The notes under the pieces were generated by a model that was given only the letters and a program-made list of their open reading frames with translations, was not told the origin of the DNA and did no database searches. A program made the translations under genes and the position numbers. Positions 6,636 to 61,253 of a stretch of 64,000 bases of DNA are shown piece after piece. The DNA is from Solirubrobacter pauli (GTDB lineage: Bacteria; Actinomycetota; Thermoleophilia; Solirubrobacterales; Solirubrobacteraceae), in the NCBI RefSeq assembly GCF_003633755.1, contig NZ_RBIL01000002.1, positions 124,001 to 188,000 of the forward strand. Reading direction: 5' to 3'. Position 1 is the first letter of the stretch. Each line of letters starts with the position of its first letter.

Positions 6636-6959
6636 TTACGCCAACGCGTCGATGATGAACAGCCGAGCGGGCTGGTCGCCGTCGTTGCGCCCCCGGTGTC
6701 GCGGATGGCTGGGGAGCGCGAACGCCTCGCCGGGCGCGAGCGCCATGTCGTCCCGCCCGTCCTCGAACGCGTACGTGAGCGCACCGCTGATCACGAAGCC
6801 GCTGTGCGGCGTCTCGCACCAGTCGGCCCGGCCATGTCCGGGCGCGTACTCGACGAGCGCCCAGCGCGTGCCGCCCACGTCCGCCTCGCGGTCGCCGACG
6901 CCCTCGTCGTGGATCGCCGGCTCAAGGCCCGAGAAGTCGATCTTGCGTGGCTCGATCAT
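6636..6959 (-). CDS. Small single-domain cupin protein
   Basis: A 107-residue protein that is one cupin beta barrel. The first cupin motif is degenerate (HSGFVISGALTYAFEDG, about residues 48-64) and the second is PGEAFALPSHPRHRG (about 73-87), leaving one or two possible metal-binding His. The ATG at 6959 gives MIEPRKIDFSGL, the usual cupin beginning; the frame is open back to a GTG at 7067, but that 36-residue extension is Ser/Leu-rich and overlaps an inverted repeat. It is the first gene of the hydantoinase operon and may bind or detoxify a pathway compound. Its substrate is unknown. Confidence 0.8.
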   Translation of the reverse strand: MIEPRKIDFSGLEPAIHDEGVGDREADVGGTRWALVEYAPGHGRADWCETPHSGFVISGALTYAFEDGRDDMALAPGEAFALPSHPRHRGRNDGDQPARLFIIDALA

Positions 6960-7265
6960 GCGGTGAAGCGTCCCACGCAGGAGGGAGGGGGAGCCTGCTC
7001 CACAAAGAAAGGGCTCGGCCAGTGAGGAGGAGAGGGTGTTGACCGAGACGCTGTGGAGCAGGCTCACGGGCTCTATCGGCGCGTCGTCGCGCGGCCTTTA
7101 GCGTTTTTCGTCGGACCTGCTCGCACGAGCCGGTCGCTCGGCTCCTCGCGGAACGCCTGCCCGTATCCGTCGCGCATGGGTGCATCATGCCGGTGACGTG
7201 GGTTGGGGCGCGCGGCTGGTCGGCGAGCAGCCCGCGGCACGGGACGACGACGACATCGACGCCGC
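6960..7265. other. 306-base stretch without a confident gene; leader of the hydantoinase operon
   Basis: This lies upstream of the cupin gene and downstream of the L,D-transpeptidase gene, both on the minus strand. It holds the inverted repeat at 6991-7065, a small hairpin with GAGCCG/CGGCTC arms at 7127-7144, and a relatively AT-rich patch around 7097-7109. A 34-codon basic reading frame on the minus strand (7073-7177) has no ribosome binding site, and I do not call it a gene. A promoter for the operon should lie here, but I could not place it with confidence. Confidence 0.6.
6991..7065. repeat. Perfect 14-bp inverted repeat with 47-base spacer in the hydantoinase operon leader
   Basis: Arms GAGCCTGCTCCACA (6991-7004) and its exact reverse complement (7052-7065). 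In the minus-strand transcript they could pair into a long stem ending about 30 bases before the cupin start codon; alternatively each arm is a binding half-site. No target-site duplication or transposase accompanies it, so it does not look like an insertion element. Confidence 0.8.
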
Positions 7266-8024
7266 TCACGCGCGGATCTCGACCGGGGTACCGGGCCCGA
7301 CCTCGCGGATCAGCCGGCGCAGCGCGGCGTGGGGGACGCGCACGCATCCGGCGCTGCCGACGCCGGACCGCGCCGCGGGCGGGACCCCGTGGATCGCCAG
7401 CCGGGAGGTGCGCGCGGGCGTTCCGTACGCCGAGAGCGGGAGGACCCATGCGCCGTAGGTGCCGCCGAAGCGCTCGCCGGGCAGGCGGTCCGTGACCTGG
7501 AAGGTGCCCAGGGGCGTCGGCGTCGACGGCGCGCCGACGACGACCCGCGTGCTCCAGCGGGAACGCCCGCCGCGCACGATCAGGCGCTGCTCGGAGCGGT
7601 CGATCACCACGCGGCGCTTCGCGTTCGGCGCGGGCCGGGTGTGGCGGCTGTGGATCCAGCCGACGCCGCCCGGGGCGTCGAGCGCCGCGACCTTCAGCCA
7701 CGGCCCGCGGCGCGCCCGCACCCACAAGCGGGTGCGGCTTCCGTAGGGCGTGCGCGCGTGGAGCCGGGTGACGGGCCGCGCGTCGGGCGACGGGCGCACG
7801 GCCGCGGTGCGGCGGTTGAGCTGCACGGTCTCCGTGCCCGCGGCGCTCGACCGGACGGCGGCGCGCCCCGCGACAGCACGCTGGGGCTCCGCGGTCGCGG
7901 TGCGCTGCGGCTCCGTGCGGGCGGGGGTCGACGACTGCCCGCAGCCGAGCAGCGAAGCGCCGGCACCGGCGACCGCGGCGACCGCGGCGAGCCGTCGGCT
8001 CCGACCCTGGAGCGGCGAGCGCAT
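7266..8024 (-). CDS. Lipoprotein L,D-transpeptidase (YkuD domain)
   Basis: A peptidoglycan L,D-transpeptidase, which forms 3-3 cross-links or anchors proteins in the wall. The ATG at 8024 gives a signal peptide ending in a lipobox (LLGC, Cys at about residue 23), so the protein is membrane-tethered outside the cell. A Thr/Ala-rich linker is followed by a small SH3-like region (about 80-125) and the YkuD domain (about 130-252). The catalytic block has IHGVP and then SAGCVRV, with Cys as nucleophile; the position after Ser varies in this family (Lys in B. subtilis YkuD), so activity is expected. It is divergent from the chemoreceptor gene across 170 bases that contain an 18-bp palindrome. Confidence 0.9.
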   Translation of the reverse strand: MRSPLQGRSRRLAAVAAVAGAGASLLGCGQSSTPARTEPQRTATAEPQRAVAGRAAVRSSAAGTETVQLNRRTAAVRPSPDARPVTRLHARTPYGSRTRLWVRARRGPWLKVAALDAPGGVGWIHSRHTRPAPNAKRRVVIDRSEQRLIVRGGRSRWSTRVVVGAPSTPTPLGTFQVTDRLPGERFGGTYGAWVLPLSAYGTPARTSRLAIHGVPPAARSGVGSAGCVRVPHAALRRLIREVGPGTPVEIRA

Positions 8025-8056
8025 GAGCAGATGATGCACGAACGGCGGGCGCGCCT

Positions 8057-8074
8057 GCGGACCACGTGGTCCGC
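8057..8074. promoter_or_regulatory. Perfect 18-bp palindrome, candidate operator between two divergent genes
   Basis: Reads GCGGACCACGTGGTCCGC, identical on both strands, with a central CACGTG. It lies 33 bases upstream of the L,D-transpeptidase start and 121 bases upstream of the chemoreceptor start. The even symmetry without a loop suits a protein dimer better than an RNA hairpin. No regulator gene is adjacent. Confidence 0.5.
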
Positions 8075-8194
8075 GCGCCAACTGGCGCACCGGGCTCAGG
8101 TGGACGGCGCGTTGGCCGACACCTCTCGTAAGACGCATATCTCCTTGCGCGGCCGTTGCCCGTGCTCCCGTTCCTACCGAGGCACTCGACTTTC

Positions 8195-9409
8195 ATGGCC
8201 ATCGCACTGCTCGGCGCCAAAGGGCGCGAACACACCGGCTCGCTCGCCGACGATCCGGTGATGCTCGAGCTCACCCACCGGCTGACGAGCCTTCACGACC
8301 ACTGCCTCACCAACCTGGTCGCGGAGTTGGACGCGATGCGCGCGGGCGACCTGACCGTCGAGGTCACGCCGGTGACGACGCCGATCGTCGCCGCGAGCGA
8401 TCAGCCCGCCGTGCAGGCGCTCGTGGACCTCTTCAACTCGATGCTCGGCAAGGCGCAGGCCGCCTTGGAGGGCTACAACGACGTGCGCGAGACGCAGCGC
8501 CGCGCTCTGGGTGACCACTCGGTCCTCGGAGGGCTCGAGACGCGGCTGGTGAGCCTGTCCGACAACTGCCTCGTCGGCCTCGGCGAGGGCCTGGCCGCCG
8601 TGGCGGAGGGTGACCTCACTGTCGATGCGAACCCGGTCACGACGCCGCTGGAGGCCCGCCCGGGCGAGTCGATCGGTGAGCTGGGCGAGGTCTTCAACCA
8701 GATGCTGGCCCGAGCGCAGGGCGGCATCTCCGCGTACAACGCGATGCGCGTGCGGCTCAACGACAAGGTCGGCGGGATGATCGACGACATCGGGTCGCTG
8801 GCCACGCGGGTCGCGTCGAGCTCACAGCAGCTGTCGGCCAGTGCGCAGGAGACCGGCGTCGCGATCGGTGAGATCGCGACCGCCGTCGGCTCGGTGGCCG
8901 AAGGCGCCGAGCGGCAGGTCCGCCTCGTCACCTCGACGCGGGACGCGGCGCACGTCGCGGTCGAGCGCGCCACCGCGGCGCAGGCGGTCGCCGCCCGCGG
9001 CGTCTCGCTGACCAGCGAGATCGCCTCGATCGCCGACCAGACCAACCTGCTGGCGCTCAACGCCGCCATCGAGGCCGCGCGTGCCGGCGAGCAGGGCCGC
9101 GGGTTCGCGGTCGTCGCCGACGAGGTGCGCAAGCTCGCCGAGTCCTCCTCGAAGACCGTGGAAGAGACCCGCGCCGCCTTCGACGCGCTCGCCGCCAGCA
9201 TCGAAGACGTCAGCGACTGCATCACGCGGGTGGCCGAGTCGACCGAGGAGGTCGCCCAGGTGGCGACGAACTCGAGCGCGGTCACCGAGGAGGTGTCCGC
9301 CGCGGCCCAGCAATCGACGGCGTCGACCGACCAGGTCGCGACGACCAGCGGCGAGCTGGCGGGCTACGCCTCCGAGCTGGAGGAGCTGGTCAGCGTCTTC
9401 AGCGTCTGA
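8195..9409 (+). CDS. Soluble methyl-accepting chemotaxis protein with duplicated N-terminal module
   Basis: A 404-residue chemoreceptor that would form CheA/CheW signalling arrays. The C-terminal signalling domain has the conserved hairpin [20 protein letters not shown] near residues 278-297, followed by [15 protein letters not shown]. There is no transmembrane segment or signal peptide, so it should act in the cytoplasm. The N-terminal part consists of two similar HAMP-like modules (about 25-105 and 108-185), each with a GDLTV-x4-PVTTP core, which looks like an internal duplication. The ATG at 8195 was chosen over an upstream GTG at 8156. No che gene is nearby, so the partner kinase lies elsewhere. 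Confidence 0.88.
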
Positions 9410-25685: not shown

Positions 25686-26441
25686 TCAGCCCCGCGCCGC
25701 GGCCTGCAGCTGCGTGATCGCGGCCCGGATCACGCGTGAGACGTGCATCTGCGAGAGGCCGACGCGCTCGCCGATCTCGGTCTGCGTGAGGTCCTCGTGG
25801 AAGCGCAGGCGGAGGATGAGCTCGTCGCGCTCGCACAGGGAGCGGAGGAGGCCGTCCAGCAGCGCGGCCTGCTCGGCGGTCTCGTAGGCGGGTTCGTCGA
25901 CGGCGAACAGCGCGCCGATCGACTCGGAGCCGTCGTCTCCGGTCGTCGGCTGGTCGAGCGAGACGGCGCGCCGGGCGGTGACGGCCTGACGGGCCTCGAG
26001 GACGGCCTCCACCGTGTGGTTCGTGCGGTCGGCCAGCTCGCTCGCCGTCGGTGCGCGGCCGAGCTCGGCCGTCAGGTCGGCCGTCGCGCGGTCGAGGTGG
26101 AGGTAGGTCTCCTGCAGGTCGCGCGGGACGCGGACCGACCAGGCGTGGTCGCGCAGATAGCGCTTGACCTCGCCGGCGATCGTCGGGACGGCGAGCGACG
26201 AGAAGGCCAGCCCGCGACCGGGGTCGAAGCGGTCGACGGCTTTCACAAGGCCCATCGCCGCCACCTGCTCGAGGTCGTCGAGCTCGGCGGCCGGGAGGTA
26301 GCGACGCGCGATCTGGCGGGCGAGCGGCATGAAGCGCTCGACGATCGCGTCGCGTGCGGCGGGTGTGCGCTCACGTGCGAGCCGCGCGAACAGCGCGTGC
26401 TCCTCGGCACGTCGGCTGCGGGGATGCGTGGGGTGCGTCAA
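25686..26441 (-). CDS. SigB/SigF/SigG-type RNA polymerase sigma factor
   Basis: A 251-residue group 3 sigma factor for general stress or developmental control. Region 2 spans about 28-95 (DLEQVAAMGLVKAVDRFDPGRG), region 3 about 100-165, and region 4 about 195-245 with the helix-turn-helix LTQTEIGERVGLSQMHVSRVIR. It starts with TTG, the first start codon available in the frame. A promoter-like sequence of its own class lies 39-66 bases upstream (26480-26507), so it probably amplifies its own expression. The gene directly upstream encodes a SpoIIE-type phosphatase, the usual activator of this sigma class through an anti-anti-sigma; no anti-sigma gene is adjacent. Confidence 0.92.
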   Translation of the reverse strand: MTHPTHPRSRRAEEHALFARLARERTPAARDAIVERFMPLARQIARRYLPAAELDDLEQVAAMGLVKAVDRFDPGRGLAFSSLAVPTIAGEVKRYLRDHAWSVRVPRDLQETYLHLDRATADLTAELGRAPTASELADRTNHTVEAVLEARQAVTARRAVSLDQPTTGDDGSESIGALFAVDEPAYETAEQAALLDGLLRSLCERDELILRLRFHEDLTQTEIGERVGLSQMHVSRVIRAAITQLQAAARG

Positions 26442-26479: not shown

Positions 26480-26507
26480 TTACCCCGGTCGTGGAACATC
26501 GGCAAAC
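26480..26507 (-). promoter_or_regulatory. SigB/F-type promoter upstream of the sigma gene
   Basis: On the minus strand GTTT (26504-26507) and GGGTAA (26480-26485) are separated by 18 bases; the class consensus is GTTT, about 15-17 bases, GGGTA. Spacing is one base long. The position, about 39 bases ahead of the sigma start codon, fits an autoregulated promoter. Confidence 0.5.
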
Positions 26508-26554
26508 GACATGGGACAGTTATCGGGACGAGCTGTCCCGGACGTGGGACAACG

Positions 26555-27933
26555 TCACTCCACGGCGAGGCAGACGACGGTCGCGTCGTCGCGCAGCCCG
26601 TCGCCCGTGGCGGCGAGCACGGCACGGTGCACCTGGCGCACCGTGTCGGCCGCGGAGCCGCGCTCGGAGCGCAGCGCCGCCGCCGCGACGCCCGCTTGCC
26701 CGAGGCCCGCCTGGCCCTCGCCCGAGTCGAACACCCCGTCCGAGCACAGCACGAGCCGGTCGCCGGGAGCGAGCGTCGTCGTCAACTCGGAAGGACGCGG
26801 GCTCGCGCGGCCGCCGAGCCCGCGGCGGACCGCGATGTCGAGCGTCTCGACCTCGCGGCTGGCGGGATCACCATCGGCGGGAGGTGCCCGCAGTTGACGA
26901 CCTCCAGCAGGAACGTGGCGGGGTCCCAGCGCGCGACGAGCGCGGTCATCTCCGCCGCGGGGCCGGGCATCTCGCGCAGCGTGCGGTGCATGAGCATCAG
27001 CGCGTCCTGCGCCGTCCCGCCGCTGCGGCGGCTCGCCCGCAGCGCCCCGAGCGCGACCGCGCTGCTGGCCGCGGCGCGCGTGCTCGGCCCGAGCCCGTCG
27101 GCGAGCGTGATCCACACGCCGTCCAGGTTCTCGACGATGTCGAACCAGTCGCCGGCCACCTCGTAGCTCGGCAGCACGTTCCCGGCCACCTCGCCGCCGG
27201 AGATGCGCGAGATGCGCGGCGGCAGCAGGCTCTGCTGGATCTCCGCCGCGGCTCGCGGCTGCTTGCGCCGCTGCCCGCGCGCGAACGTGTCCGTGTAGCG
27301 GTCGGCGAGCGTGATCGCGGCGGCCGCCTGGCGCGCGATCTCCGCGAGCGGCCGGCGCGGCCGGCCGAGCGTGAGCATCACACCCGTCGCCCGCCCGCGC
27401 AGCCACAGCGGTACCACCTCGATCCCCGGGCGATCCGCCAGCGCCGCGCGCAGCTGCGACAGTCCGTCGGAGTCGAGCTCCGGGCCGACCGCGAGCGGCG
27501 CCTCGATCCGCTCGGGCAGCCGCTCCGGCCCGGCCACCCGCAGCAGGTGCGAGCCGTCGATGTCGAGCACGTACAGCGCGAGCGGCACGTCGGCGATCCG
27601 CTGCGCCTCCGCCACCAGCTGCTCGGGCAGCACCGGCGGGGCGACGACGTCGAACACGTGGATGCCCTCCAGCGGCACCGGGCGCTCGCGACCCAGGTGC
27701 CCGGGCGGCAGCGGATGCTCGGACGGCTCGTCCGCCTCGCGCGGACGGTGCGCCTGCGCGGCGCGCAGCAGGCTCTCGCGGTCCGGGAAGTGCCGGTACA
27801 GCGTCGAGCGCGAGACTCCGGCGGCGGCCGCCACGTCGGCGACGGGCGCGGTCGGCGACTGCTCGAGCAGCCGACGGCTCGCCTCGATGATCCGCACGCG
27901 GGTGCGTTCCGCGTCGGCGCGGTTGGAGGGCAT
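26555..27933 (-). CDS. TetR-HTH / GAF-like / SpoIIE phosphatase fusion, interrupted by a frameshift near 26870
   Basis: The N-terminal 60 residues are a TetR-type helix-turn-helix (ADVAAAAGVSRSTLYRHFPDRESLL). Residues about 95-235 look like a GAF sensor, and from about 260 a SpoIIE/PP2C serine phosphatase begins (QQSLLPP, then AGDWFDIV and ADGLGPS). The frame runs to NCGHLPPM (about residue 355), then reads nonsense and stops at 26782. The rest of the phosphatase (EVETLDIAVRRG, APGDRLVLCSDGVFDSGE, DDATVVCLAVE) continues in the next frame to 26555. Inserting one base near 26870-26876 restores one 459-residue protein. Either a one-base deletion has broken the gene or the base was lost in sequencing. 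It lies 113 bases upstream of the SigB/F-type gene on the same strand. Confidence 0.8.
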
Positions 27934-59324: not shown

Positions 59325-61253
59325 TCAACGCTCGGTCTTGACGACCAGCGCGCTGCCGCCGCCGCGGCGGACCGGCTCGGCGGCCGCGAGCATCTTCCCG
59401 CGGTCGAAGAATTCGATGCCGGTGGTGGCGCCGATCTCGGCCTGCGGCGTGCCGAACGCGTGCCCGTACCGGGCCGTCAGCGCCGGCGCCTCGGTGTTCA
59501 TGAACTCGGGCTCGCCGATGCTGGTCGCGCCGTTGCGCTGGGACACGCGCGGCGCGGCGATCGCGCCCGGCAGGTCCTTGCCGAGCTCGAGGCGCTCGAG
59601 CAGGGTCTGCAGGACGGTGGTGATGATCATCGAGCCGCCCGGGGAGCCCACGGCGAGGAACGGCTTGCCGCCCTTCGTGACGATCGTGGGCGCCATCGAG
59701 CTGCGCGGGCGCTTGCCGCCCTCGGAGCGGTTGGGCGCGGTCAGCGACGTGTAGTCGAAGTCCGTCAGCTCGTTGTTGAGCAGGATGCCCGTGCCGGGGA
59801 CGACGATGCCGTTGCCGCCCGTGGACTCGACCGTGAACGTGTACGAGACGACCATGCCGTGCTTGTCGGCGATCGTCAGGTGCGTGGTCGACGGGCCGTC
59901 GCTGAGCGCCGGCGTGACGCCGGCCGGGCCGCAGTCGCCGCCTTCGACGGCGGCGTTCTTGGCCTGGTCGGTGATCAGCGCGCGGCGCGCGTCCGCGAAC
60001 TGCTGCGAGAGCAGGCACTCCAGCGGGACCTTCACGAACGCCGGGTCACCCAGGTACTTGCCGCGGTCCGCGAACGCGTAGCGGCTCGCCTCGAGGAAGC
60101 GGTGCAGCGCCTGCGTGCGGTCTGCGCCGATCGGCTTGTAGCCCTCGAGGATGTTGAGCGCCTCGCCGACGGTCGAGCCGCCCGAGGACGGCGGGCCCAT
60201 GCCCCAGACCTCGAGGCCCTTGTAGTCGACCTTGGTCGGCTTGCGCTCGATCGCGCGGTACTTCGCGATGTCCTGCTCGGTGATCAGGCCCGGTCGCCAC
60301 GTGTGGTTGGCGGTCGGCGCGATCGGCGGGCGCTGGGCGGCGTTCGCGATCGCCTTGGCGAGCGGGCCGCGGTAGAACGCGTCGGCGCCGTGGCGTCCGA
60401 TGTACTCGTACGTCTTCGCGAGGTCCGGGTTCTTGAGCGTGCTGCCGACGTCACGCGGCGTGCCGTCCGGGTCGAGGTAGATCGCGGCTGTGGACGGGAC
60501 GTCGTCGAAGTAGTCGATGTTCGGGACCGTCTGGTCGTAGAACGTCTGGTCGACGGTGAAGCCGTTGCGCGCGACGTTGATGCCGGGCTCGAGCAGCTTC
60601 CGCAGCGGCTTGCTGCCGTAGCGCTCGAGCGCGAGCTCCCACTTGGCCACCGTGCCCGGCACGCCCGCGGACAGGCCGCTGTAGCGCGCGTCGTTGAACG
60701 GCAGCGCGGCGCCGTTCTCCCAGAACGAGTCCGGCTTCATCGCGGCGCCGGCGGTCTCGCGGCCGTCGATCGTCGTCACCTGGCCGCGCGCGGTGCGGAT
60801 GACCATGAAGCCGCCGCCGCCGATGCCGGACGAGAACGGCTCGGTCACGCCCAGCACGCCCGCCGCGGCGACGGCCGCATCGACTGCGTTGCCGCCCTGC
60901 TTGAGCGTGTCGATCGCGGCGTCCGTGGCGAGCAGGTCGACGGTCGCGGCAGCGCCGCCCGTGCCGACCGCGGTCGCCGTCTTCTGCGGCAGGCCGCCGC
61001 CCGGACCGCCGGGGTGACCGGGGTGCCCGGGACCGCCGCCCGGCCCGCCCGGATGGCCGTGCCCGCCGCCGGGCCCGCCGCCCGGCCCGCCCGGATGGCC
61101 GTGCCCGCCACCCGGCCCGCCCTGGTGCCCGCCACCCTTGTGACCGGGCTTGTCGCGGTCCCCGTGCCCGCGATCGCCTGCCGTCGCGGTGGCCGCGCCG
61201 GCGCCTGAGACCGCGATCGCGATGGCGATCGTCGGCAGCAGCGTGCGTCTCAT
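59325..61253 (-). CDS. ggt: Secreted gamma-glutamyltransferase with Gly/His-rich N-terminal spacer
   Basis: Cleaves or transfers the gamma-glutamyl group of glutathione and related peptides outside the cell. The 642-residue precursor has a signal peptide (about 1-24), then a Gly/His/Pro spacer (about 25-82) and the Ntn-hydrolase. Large-subunit markers: GGNAVDAAVAAAGVLGVTEP and SGIGGGGFMV near 105-137. The self-cleavage/nucleophile Thr lies in PSTTHLTIADKHG (about 448-460), NNELTDF and GSPGG follow. GGAGGAAGG precedes the ATG at 61253. The spacer, with a 42-bp tandem repeat in the DNA, is not part of the normal family architecture and may bind metal or wall. Confidence 0.92.
   Translation of the reverse strand: MRRTLLPTIAIAIAVSGAGAATATAGDRGHGDRDKPGHKGGGHQGGPGGGHGHPGGPGGGPGGGHGHPGGPGGGPGHPGHPGGPGGGLPQKTATAVGTGGAAATVDLLATDAAIDTLKQGGNAVDAAVAAAGVLGVTEPFSSGIGGGGFMVIRTARGQVTTIDGRETAGAAMKPDSFWENGAALPFNDARYSGLSAGVPGTVAKWELALERYGSKPLRKLLEPGINVARNGFTVDQTFYDQTVPNIDYFDDVPSTAAIYLDPDGTPRDVGSTLKNPDLAKTYEYIGRHGADAFYRGPLAKAIANAAQRPPIAPTANHTWRPGLITEQDIAKYRAIERKPTKVDYKGLEVWGMGPPSSGGSTVGEALNILEGYKPIGADRTQALHRFLEASRYAFADRGKYLGDPAFVKVPLECLLSQQFADARRALITDQAKNAAVEGGDCGPAGVTPALSDGPSTTHLTIADKHGMVVSYTFTVESTGGNGIVVPGTGILLNNELTDFDYTSLTAPNRSEGGKRPRSSMAPTIVTKGGKPFLAVGSPGGSMIITTVLQTLLERLELGKDLPGAIAAPRVSQRNGATSIGEPEFMNTEAPALTARYGHAFGTPQAEIGATTGIEFFDRGKMLAAAEPVRRGGGSALVVKTER
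60997..61109. repeat. 42-bp tandem repeat inside the gamma-glutamyltransferase gene
   Basis: A 29-base block at 61039-61067 recurs exactly at 61081-61109, period 42 bases (14 codons), and a degraded third copy begins near 60997. Each unit encodes the peptide GGHGHPGGPGGGPG or close. The in-frame period lets copy number change without a frameshift. Confidence 0.75.

What the first reader, a model, noticed from the sequence alone, without database searches (positions are those of the whole stretch)
26555..27933. TetR helix-turn-helix, GAF-like domain and SpoIIE phosphatase in one gene, split by a frameshift
The sequence shows a TetR-type DNA-binding start, a GAF-like middle and a SpoIIE phosphatase that changes frame near 26870. 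Both halves of the phosphatase carry intact family motifs, so the break is recent, a sequencing error, or a way to make two products. A DNA-binding domain on a SpoIIE phosphatase next to its sigma gene would link transcription control and partner switching in one polypeptide.
Basis: partly seen in the sequence, partly recalled or inferred. Interest (0 to 1): 0.62.

Follow-up and report, generated by a model that had tools for sequence, protein, structure and literature searches.

The report
DNA-binding stress phosphatase, one copy frameshifted
A soil bacterium of the genus Solirubrobacter carries a gene that joins a TetR-type DNA-binding head, a GAF sensor and a SpoIIE-type phosphatase; this fusion is an undescribed but widespread family in its class with what looks like its own DNA target site, while the frame break that drew attention is private to this one genome and probably a sequencing error or a fresh mutation.

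Summary
Minus strand 27933-26555 encodes TetR_N + GAF + SpoIIE (PPM) phosphatase, and the frame changes at 26852-26865. The stretch is one base shorter than in relatives (38 vs 39 nt), not longer. Congeneric orthologs and all but one of roughly 60 listed relatives are open, the downstream half shows no relaxed constraint, and this is the only unexplained frame break in 64 kb: a sequencing error or very recent mutation, not a two-product device. The fusion itself is real and interesting. It is common in Thermoleophilia (about 50 of 399 genomes); in a phylum-wide sample its TetR part was seen only there. AlphaFold and structure searches support GAF and PPM folds. Upstream of 33 family genes a spacing-specific palindrome, GGGACA-N3-TGTCCC, is enriched (20/33 vs 21/208, p 5e-10; 0 of 10 TetR-less SpoIIE genes). 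In Solirubrobacter it instead follows the stop codon by 14-15 nt, before the sigma gene. Family genes cluster with DUF2382/PRC (YsnF-like general-stress) genes. Best reading: a DNA-bound partner-switching phosphatase that regulates itself and/or stress genes transcriptionally and releases a SigB/F-type sigma by dephosphorylation. Binding and catalysis are inferred.

The parts
26555..27933 (-). TetR-GAF-SpoIIE phosphatase gene, frame-broken in this genome
   Evidence: Pfam TetR_N and both halves of SpoIIE; intact orthologs at 92-93% identity over the N part
27757..27891 (-). TetR-type helix-turn-helix (aa 15-59), recognition helix VSRSTLYRHF
   Evidence: PF00440 E 9.6e-11; both R of R-S-T-L-Y-R invariant in 32 family members
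27286..27672 (-). GAF domain (approximate limits)
   Evidence: AlphaFold model of the ortholog's middle, pLDDT 85; best PDB matches are GAF domains, DevS GAF-B 2vks E 8.4e-5
26866..27210 (-). SpoIIE/PPM phosphatase, first half (GDWFD and ADG motifs; approximate upstream limit)
   Evidence: PF07228 positions 4-94; ortholog fold matches Rv1364c RsbU domain 3ke6 Z 25.7
26852..26865 (-). stretch in which the reading frame changes; one base shorter than in relatives
   Evidence: 38 vs 39 nt between conserved anchors; codon scan break at 26863/26864
26555..26851 (-). SpoIIE/PPM phosphatase, second half (SDG and DDAT motifs), other frame
   Evidence: PF07228 positions 100-191; constraint like that between intact orthologs
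26525..26539 (.). candidate operator GGGACAGCTCGTCCC (minus-strand reading), palindrome GGGAC-N5-GTCCC with no mismatch
   Evidence: Same place (stop+14 or +15) in G001 and G004 orthologs with 1 mismatch; family-wide enrichment of this palindrome upstream of the genes
26513..26551 (.). wider cluster of GGGACA/TGTCCC half-sites around the candidate operator
   Evidence: three half-sites within 39 bp against 20 in the whole 64 kb window
26480..26507 (-). possible SigB-type promoter (GTTT, 18 nt, GGGTA) in front of the sigma gene; weak
   Evidence: read directly from sequence; spacer somewhat longer than the 14-16 nt of the verified B. subtilis SigB promoters in PMC7824861; not tested statistically
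25686..26441 (-). SigB/SigF/SigG-type sigma factor gene
   Evidence: Sigma70 r2, r3, r4; TIGR02980 232.4 bits, just under its cut-off of 234.35

Best explanation
The gene belongs to a family of TetR-GAF-PPM proteins of Thermoleophilia. As a dimer the TetR head most likely binds a 15-bp palindrome GGGACA-N3-TGTCCC next to its own gene or, in Solirubrobacter, between its gene and the following sigma (or DUF2382-sigma) genes. The GAF domain senses a signal and passes it on both to DNA binding and to the PPM phosphatase, which dephosphorylates an RsbV-like STAS protein and so frees a SigB/F-type sigma from its RsbW-like inhibitor. One protein would thereby set both the amount and the activity of a stress sigma. 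Shown: domains, predicted folds, intact catalytic motifs in the family, spacing-specific enrichment of the palindrome, its conserved position before the sigma gene in the genus, and stress-gene neighbours. Inferred: DNA binding, ligand sensing, phosphatase activity, substrate, sign of regulation. In this genome the phosphatase half is out of frame through a private one-base difference; if real, the product keeps DNA-binding and GAF parts and lacks the SDG and DDAT catalytic motifs.
For: Domains: Pfam TetR_N and SpoIIE in 32 of 32 family members. Folds: ortholog model pLDDT 88.5, PPM match to Rv1364c RsbU domain Z 25.7 over 217 residues, GAF matches. Catalytic motifs: each of the four motif aspartates kept in 31 or 32 of 32 members. 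Palindrome: GGACA in 26/33 upstream regions vs 57/218 control genes, p 9e-9, best of 430 pentamers tested; GGGACA-N3-TGTCCC with at most 3 mismatches 20/33 vs 21/208, p 5.4e-10, peak at this one spacing, 20 vs mean 5.0 and maximum 9 in 100 shuffles, 0 of 10 TetR-less SpoIIE genes. Recognition helix nearly invariant. In G000, G001 and G004 the site sits 14-15 nt after the stop, with the sigma gene next or next but one on the same strand. Neighbours: 8 of 22 DUF2382 genes in 16 genomes lie within about 3 kb of a fusion gene (one search compared); BrkB, MS-channel, DUF3618, STAS and sigma genes recur. ysnF, the B. subtilis DUF2382-type gene (control; name from general knowledge), is listed as a SigB-regulon gene in PMC7824861. 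Frame break private.
Against: No binding or enzyme data. No PF13581 anti-sigma kinase match falls within the window, so the partner proteins act from elsewhere if at all. The sigma neighbour is not kept in the 63-69% orthologs. About 13 of 33 family genes lack a good palindrome within 250 bp, and several of the 20 counted have 3 mismatches. Start codons were set by rule, so distances are approximate. The palindrome was found by looking at these same sequences, so the p values are optimistic, although the spacing peak, the shuffles and the TetR-less control were separate tests.
Confidence: 0.6

Rival explanations
1. The frame break is a sequencing or assembly error; the living organism has an intact gene.
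For: All same-genus orthologs are intact; the downstream half keeps 79-81% identity and dN/dS 0.16-0.30, as between intact orthologs; no other SpoIIE paralog of this genome looks broken; single-base indels in GC-rich tracts are a common error type (general knowledge).
Against: No other unexplained frame break was found in 64 kb, so the assembly is not full of indels; no reads could be inspected.
Confidence: 0.6
2. The break is a real, recent inactivating mutation that leaves a TetR-GAF DNA-binding protein without phosphatase.
For: Private to this genome, one base, no decay yet downstream; G005 of the same genus holds a deleted remnant of a family member, so losses occur.
Against: Indistinguishable from an error without reads.
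Confidence: 0.36
3. Programmed frameshifting or two separate products.
For: Both halves keep motifs and constraint.
Against: No ortholog has the break; no A/T-rich slippery heptamer is seen at the site; either half alone lacks catalytic residues.
Confidence: 0.03
4. The enriched palindrome is the site of some other regulator of stress genes, or a terminator hairpin, and the TetR head does not bind it.
For: Palindrome near promoters could serve any dimeric regulator; a perfect copy in G000 lies between a MmyB-like regulator gene and an SDR gene.
Against: Absent from 10 TetR-less SpoIIE genes and rare before neighbouring genes (21/208); typical place 30-80 bp before starts argues against a terminator; the other G000 copies lie inside called ORFs.
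Confidence: 0.25

Closest known systems
RsbU/RsbP/SpoIIE-type PPM phosphatases of partner switching (B. subtilis)
   Same: PF07228 domain, PPM fold, acidic motifs, N-terminal sensor part; SigB/F-type sigma next door in the genus
   Different: N-terminal TetR helix-turn-helix and a candidate operator; RsbU has a four-helix-bundle dimerisation domain and RssB a receiver domain there (PMC12143880)
Rv1364c of Mycobacterium tuberculosis
   Same: Closest solved phosphatase structure (3ke6, Z 25.7); multidomain partner-switching protein
   Different: Rv1364c joins RsbU with RsbW (3ke6 title); no TetR head
TetR family regulators
   Same: TetR_N helix-turn-helix; palindromic site near own gene
   Different: The usual ligand-binding C-terminal domain is replaced by GAF and PPM domains
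Signalling-helix proteins with HTH domains (PMC1592074)
   Same: Precedent for helix-turn-helix domains joined to sensory and signalling modules
   Different: That paper reports HTH linked to sensory domains at low frequency; the terms searched in it gave no TetR-PP2C fusion

Membership tests
SpoIIE/RsbU-type PPM phosphatase | PF07228 domain over the whole profile | tested here: met
   32 of 32 family members; in the window copy as two halves, 4-94 and 100-191
SpoIIE/RsbU-type PPM phosphatase | PPM fold | tested here: met
   ortholog model, 3ke6 Z 25.7, rmsd 2.4, 217 aligned
SpoIIE/RsbU-type PPM phosphatase | motif aspartates GDWFD, ADG, SDG, DDAT | tested here: met
   31-32 of 32 members; in the window copy divided between two frames, so its predicted product is not catalytically complete
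SpoIIE/RsbU-type PPM phosphatase | dephosphorylates an RsbV-like STAS protein | not testable with these tools
   needs biochemistry
Partner-switching module | SigB/F-type sigma gene beside the phosphatase | tested here: met
   window, G001, G006, G004; not in G060 or G053b; G053a has one about 6.4 kb away
Partner-switching module | RsbW-like kinase and RsbV-like STAS genes beside it | tested here: not met
   no PF13581 match within the window; many elsewhere in the genome; an STAS gene lies beside the G162 ortholog
TetR family regulator | TetR_N helix-turn-helix | tested here: met
   E 9.6e-11, 32 of 32 members
TetR family regulator | all-helical ligand-binding C-terminal domain | tested here: not met
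   no TetR C-terminal Pfam match; model shows GAF and PPM there. So it works like a TetR regulator at most in its head
TetR family regulator | binds a palindromic operator near its gene | tested here: inconclusive
   spacing-specific palindrome enriched; binding itself not tested
GAF domain | GAF fold | tested here: met
   Foldseek top matches GAF, E 8.4e-5; Pfam GAF in only 2 of 32 members
Programmed frameshift gene | break conserved in orthologs | tested here: not met
   orthologs open

The most novel reading that the evidence does not exclude
TetR-GAF-PPM proteins are dual-output regulators: the same polypeptide sits on a GGGACA-N3-TGTCCC operator controlling its own and stress or sigma genes and, on a GAF signal, turns on as a partner-switching phosphatase, so that promoter occupancy and sigma release are coupled in one molecule. 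This would be a new way of wiring one-component DNA binding to partner switching, spread through Thermoleophilia.
Probability: 0.45. Interest if true: 0.7.

Novelty: new variant of a known kind. Interest (0 to 1): 0.5.

Why it matters
PPM phosphatases of the SpoIIE/RsbU kind control general stress responses and are known with many sensor heads, but the papers searched describe none with a TetR DNA-binding head. A class-wide family with a candidate operator makes a concrete, cheap test possible: does a partner-switching phosphatase also act as a transcription factor, and does its GAF signal set both outputs? It also offers an entry into stress control in Thermoleophilia, soil bacteria with little genetics. 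The frame break itself matters little.

Tried and rejected
Extra base at the break: rejected, one base fewer than in relatives. Programmed frameshift: rejected, no ortholog shares it. Old pseudogene: rejected, downstream constraint intact. Assembly generally rich in indels: not supported by the 64 kb codon scan. An inverted-repeat search in single upstream regions gave only weak unshared repeats; the motif appeared only when many loci were compared. Wider pair GGGACA-N15-TGTCCC: only 3 places in the genome, two of them long GC palindromes, superseded by the N3 spacing. Genome-wide regulon from the operator: 11 sites with at most 1 mismatch vs 2 in the reversed control, but apart from the window site all overlap called ORFs; one of them (C1:596082) lies near the start of a MmyB-like regulator gene, just before a divergent SDR gene, so no regulon is claimed. 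Literature searches for TetR-SpoIIE fusions, Solirubrobacter SpoIIE, DUF2382 with sigma, and Thermoleophilia partner switching gave nothing on point; only open-licence papers are held. Fold search of the full model listed only PPM matches; GAF needed its own model.

Full report
What is there. The gene runs on the minus strand from 27933 to 26555. Its first 383-codon frame holds a TetR helix-turn-helix (PF00440, E 9.6e-11) and the first half of a SpoIIE phosphatase (PF07228 positions 4-94). The second half (positions 100-191) lies in another frame. A SigB/F/G-type sigma gene follows on the same strand at 26441-25686 and a beta-lactamase-fold serine hydrolase gene is divergent upstream. The genome is a 7.1 Mb, 4-contig Solirubrobacter-group assembly: the same-genus relatives match records of S. 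deserti and S. taibaiensis. It has 22 SpoIIE matches counting the two halves of this gene.

The frame break. Orthologs in G001, G006 (identical proteins; both trace to records labelled CPCC 204708) and G004 are 92-93% identical over the first part and are open to the end. Between the conserved anchors ..GH.PP.V. and RRGLGG they have 39 nt; the window has 38. After the break, identity to G001 and G004 is 79-81% with dN/dS 0.30 and 0.16, against 79% and 0.15 between the two intact orthologs; identity to the three more distant orthologs is 60-69%, against 57-64% for G001 and G004. So the downstream half shows no decay. A codon-usage Viterbi scan of the window found this as the only same-strand frame change away from any stop and start, setting aside a low-complexity stretch near 61 kb. 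Of the roughly 60 relatives listed in the class search only one other has an internal stop. Error or very recent mutation are the two live options; nothing here separates them. If real, the product keeps TetR and GAF parts and loses the SDG and DDAT motifs.

The family. Searching 399 genomes of the class gave matches at E <= 1e-60 in 52, most of them starting at residue 1-3, that is, including the TetR head. In a phylum-wide sample of 396 genomes, matches outside the window's own family all began at profile position 91 or later, that is, without the TetR head; a very divergent head could be missed by this local search. In an alignment of 32 members TetR_N and SpoIIE were found in all 32, each of the four motif aspartates in 31-32, and the recognition helix V-x-R-S-T-L-Y-R-H-F is almost invariant. 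The intact ortholog was modelled with mean pLDDT 88.5. Its phosphatase part matches the RsbU domain of Rv1364c (3ke6) at Z 25.7. The middle, modelled alone, matches GAF domains best, DevS GAF-B at E 8.4e-5. A four-domain TetR-PAS-GAF-SpoIIE form exists in G056 (its GAF part inferred from alignment to the family).

A candidate operator. Reading the intergenic stretch after the stop codon in three species showed GGGACA and TGTCCC half-sites. Random placement of flank-sized windows in ten ortholog loci never reached the score of this hexamer, 0 of 400. Extended to 33 family genes against 208-218 neighbouring genes, GGACA/TGTCC was the best of 430 pentamers tested, 26/33 vs 57/218, p 9e-9. The inverted pair is enriched at one spacing: GGGACA-N3-TGTCCC with at most 3 mismatches in 20/33 vs 21/208, p 5.4e-10, with much weaker signals at other spacings. 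Dinucleotide shuffles gave mean 5.0 and maximum 9. Ten SpoIIE genes without TetR head had none. Many sites sit 30-80 bp before the start. In Solirubrobacter the site is instead 14-15 nt after the stop: GGGACAGCTCGTCCC in the window (26525-26539), GGGACACTTCGTACC in G001, GGGACGGTTTGTACC in G004. The next same-strand gene is the sigma gene in the window, a short DUF2382 remnant then sigma in G001, and a PRC-DUF2382 gene then sigma in G004. The motif was discovered on these same sequences, so the p values are optimistic; the shuffles and the TetR-less control are the independent checks.

Neighbourhood. In 20 loci and 134 neighbouring genes scanned, DUF2382 (7), PRC (6), BrkB (6), MS-channel (5), DUF3618 (3), holin-X (3), Sigma70_r2 (4) and STAS (2) recur. 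DUF2382 is rare, 22 matches in 16 genomes, yet 8 lie within about 3 kb of a fusion gene (one search compared); by my arithmetic chance would give well under one. The B. subtilis DUF2382-type gene ysnF is listed as a SigB-regulon gene (PMC7824861). No RsbW-type kinase match lies within the window.

How it probably works. PPM phosphatases of this kind are activated by ordering of a linker and dimerisation of the phosphatase domains, with diverse sensor heads (PMC12143880). By analogy a GAF signal, and possibly operator binding by a TetR dimer, would set that state. The phosphatase would act on RsbV-like proteins encoded elsewhere and release a SigB/F-type sigma; the TetR head would regulate its own gene or, in Solirubrobacter, the downstream sigma operon. 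The sequence supports the parts and the site; binding, activity, substrate and sign are inference.

Compared with what is known. As a phosphatase it is a member of the SpoIIE/RsbU PPM group. As a TetR regulator it has the head but not the usual C-terminal domain, so it is not filed there. The searches of open papers found no description of a TetR-PPM fusion. I rate it a new variant of a known kind.

Noticed in passing
L047 (G056) 6686-8896 minus; L049 (G043): A TetR-PAS-GAF-SpoIIE four-domain form is encoded in one frame in G056; in the same genus G043 the TetR part lies in a different frame from the rest.
   Followed up: partly
G153:C43:14086-15177: Another family member carries an internal TGA; the only other listed member with a stop inside.
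   Followed up: no
L031 (G005:C31, 9552-9869): Remnant of a family member in the same genus: GAF part joined to the SDG end with most of the phosphatase deleted.
   Followed up: no
G000:C1:596082-596096 (L123:2083-2097): Perfect GGGACA-N3-TGTCCC palindrome 44 bp before an SDR gene, overlapping the called start of a divergent MmyB-like regulator; probably another regulator's site.
   Followed up: partly
L103 (G000:C3:246500-253500): Cluster with a GAF-like plus SpoIIE protein, proteins that look like STAS and HATPase partners, and a short PP2C protein, resembling a stressosome set; all frames look intact (STAS assignment by eye).
   Followed up: no
L039:8371-8620: In S. deserti a shortened DUF2382 coding remnant sits between the fusion gene and the sigma gene; G004 has the full PRC-DUF2382 gene there and the window has none.
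   Followed up: partly
window 61000-61250: Low-complexity coding stretch where the codon scan switches frame briefly and returns; probably repeat composition, not a break.
   Followed up: no
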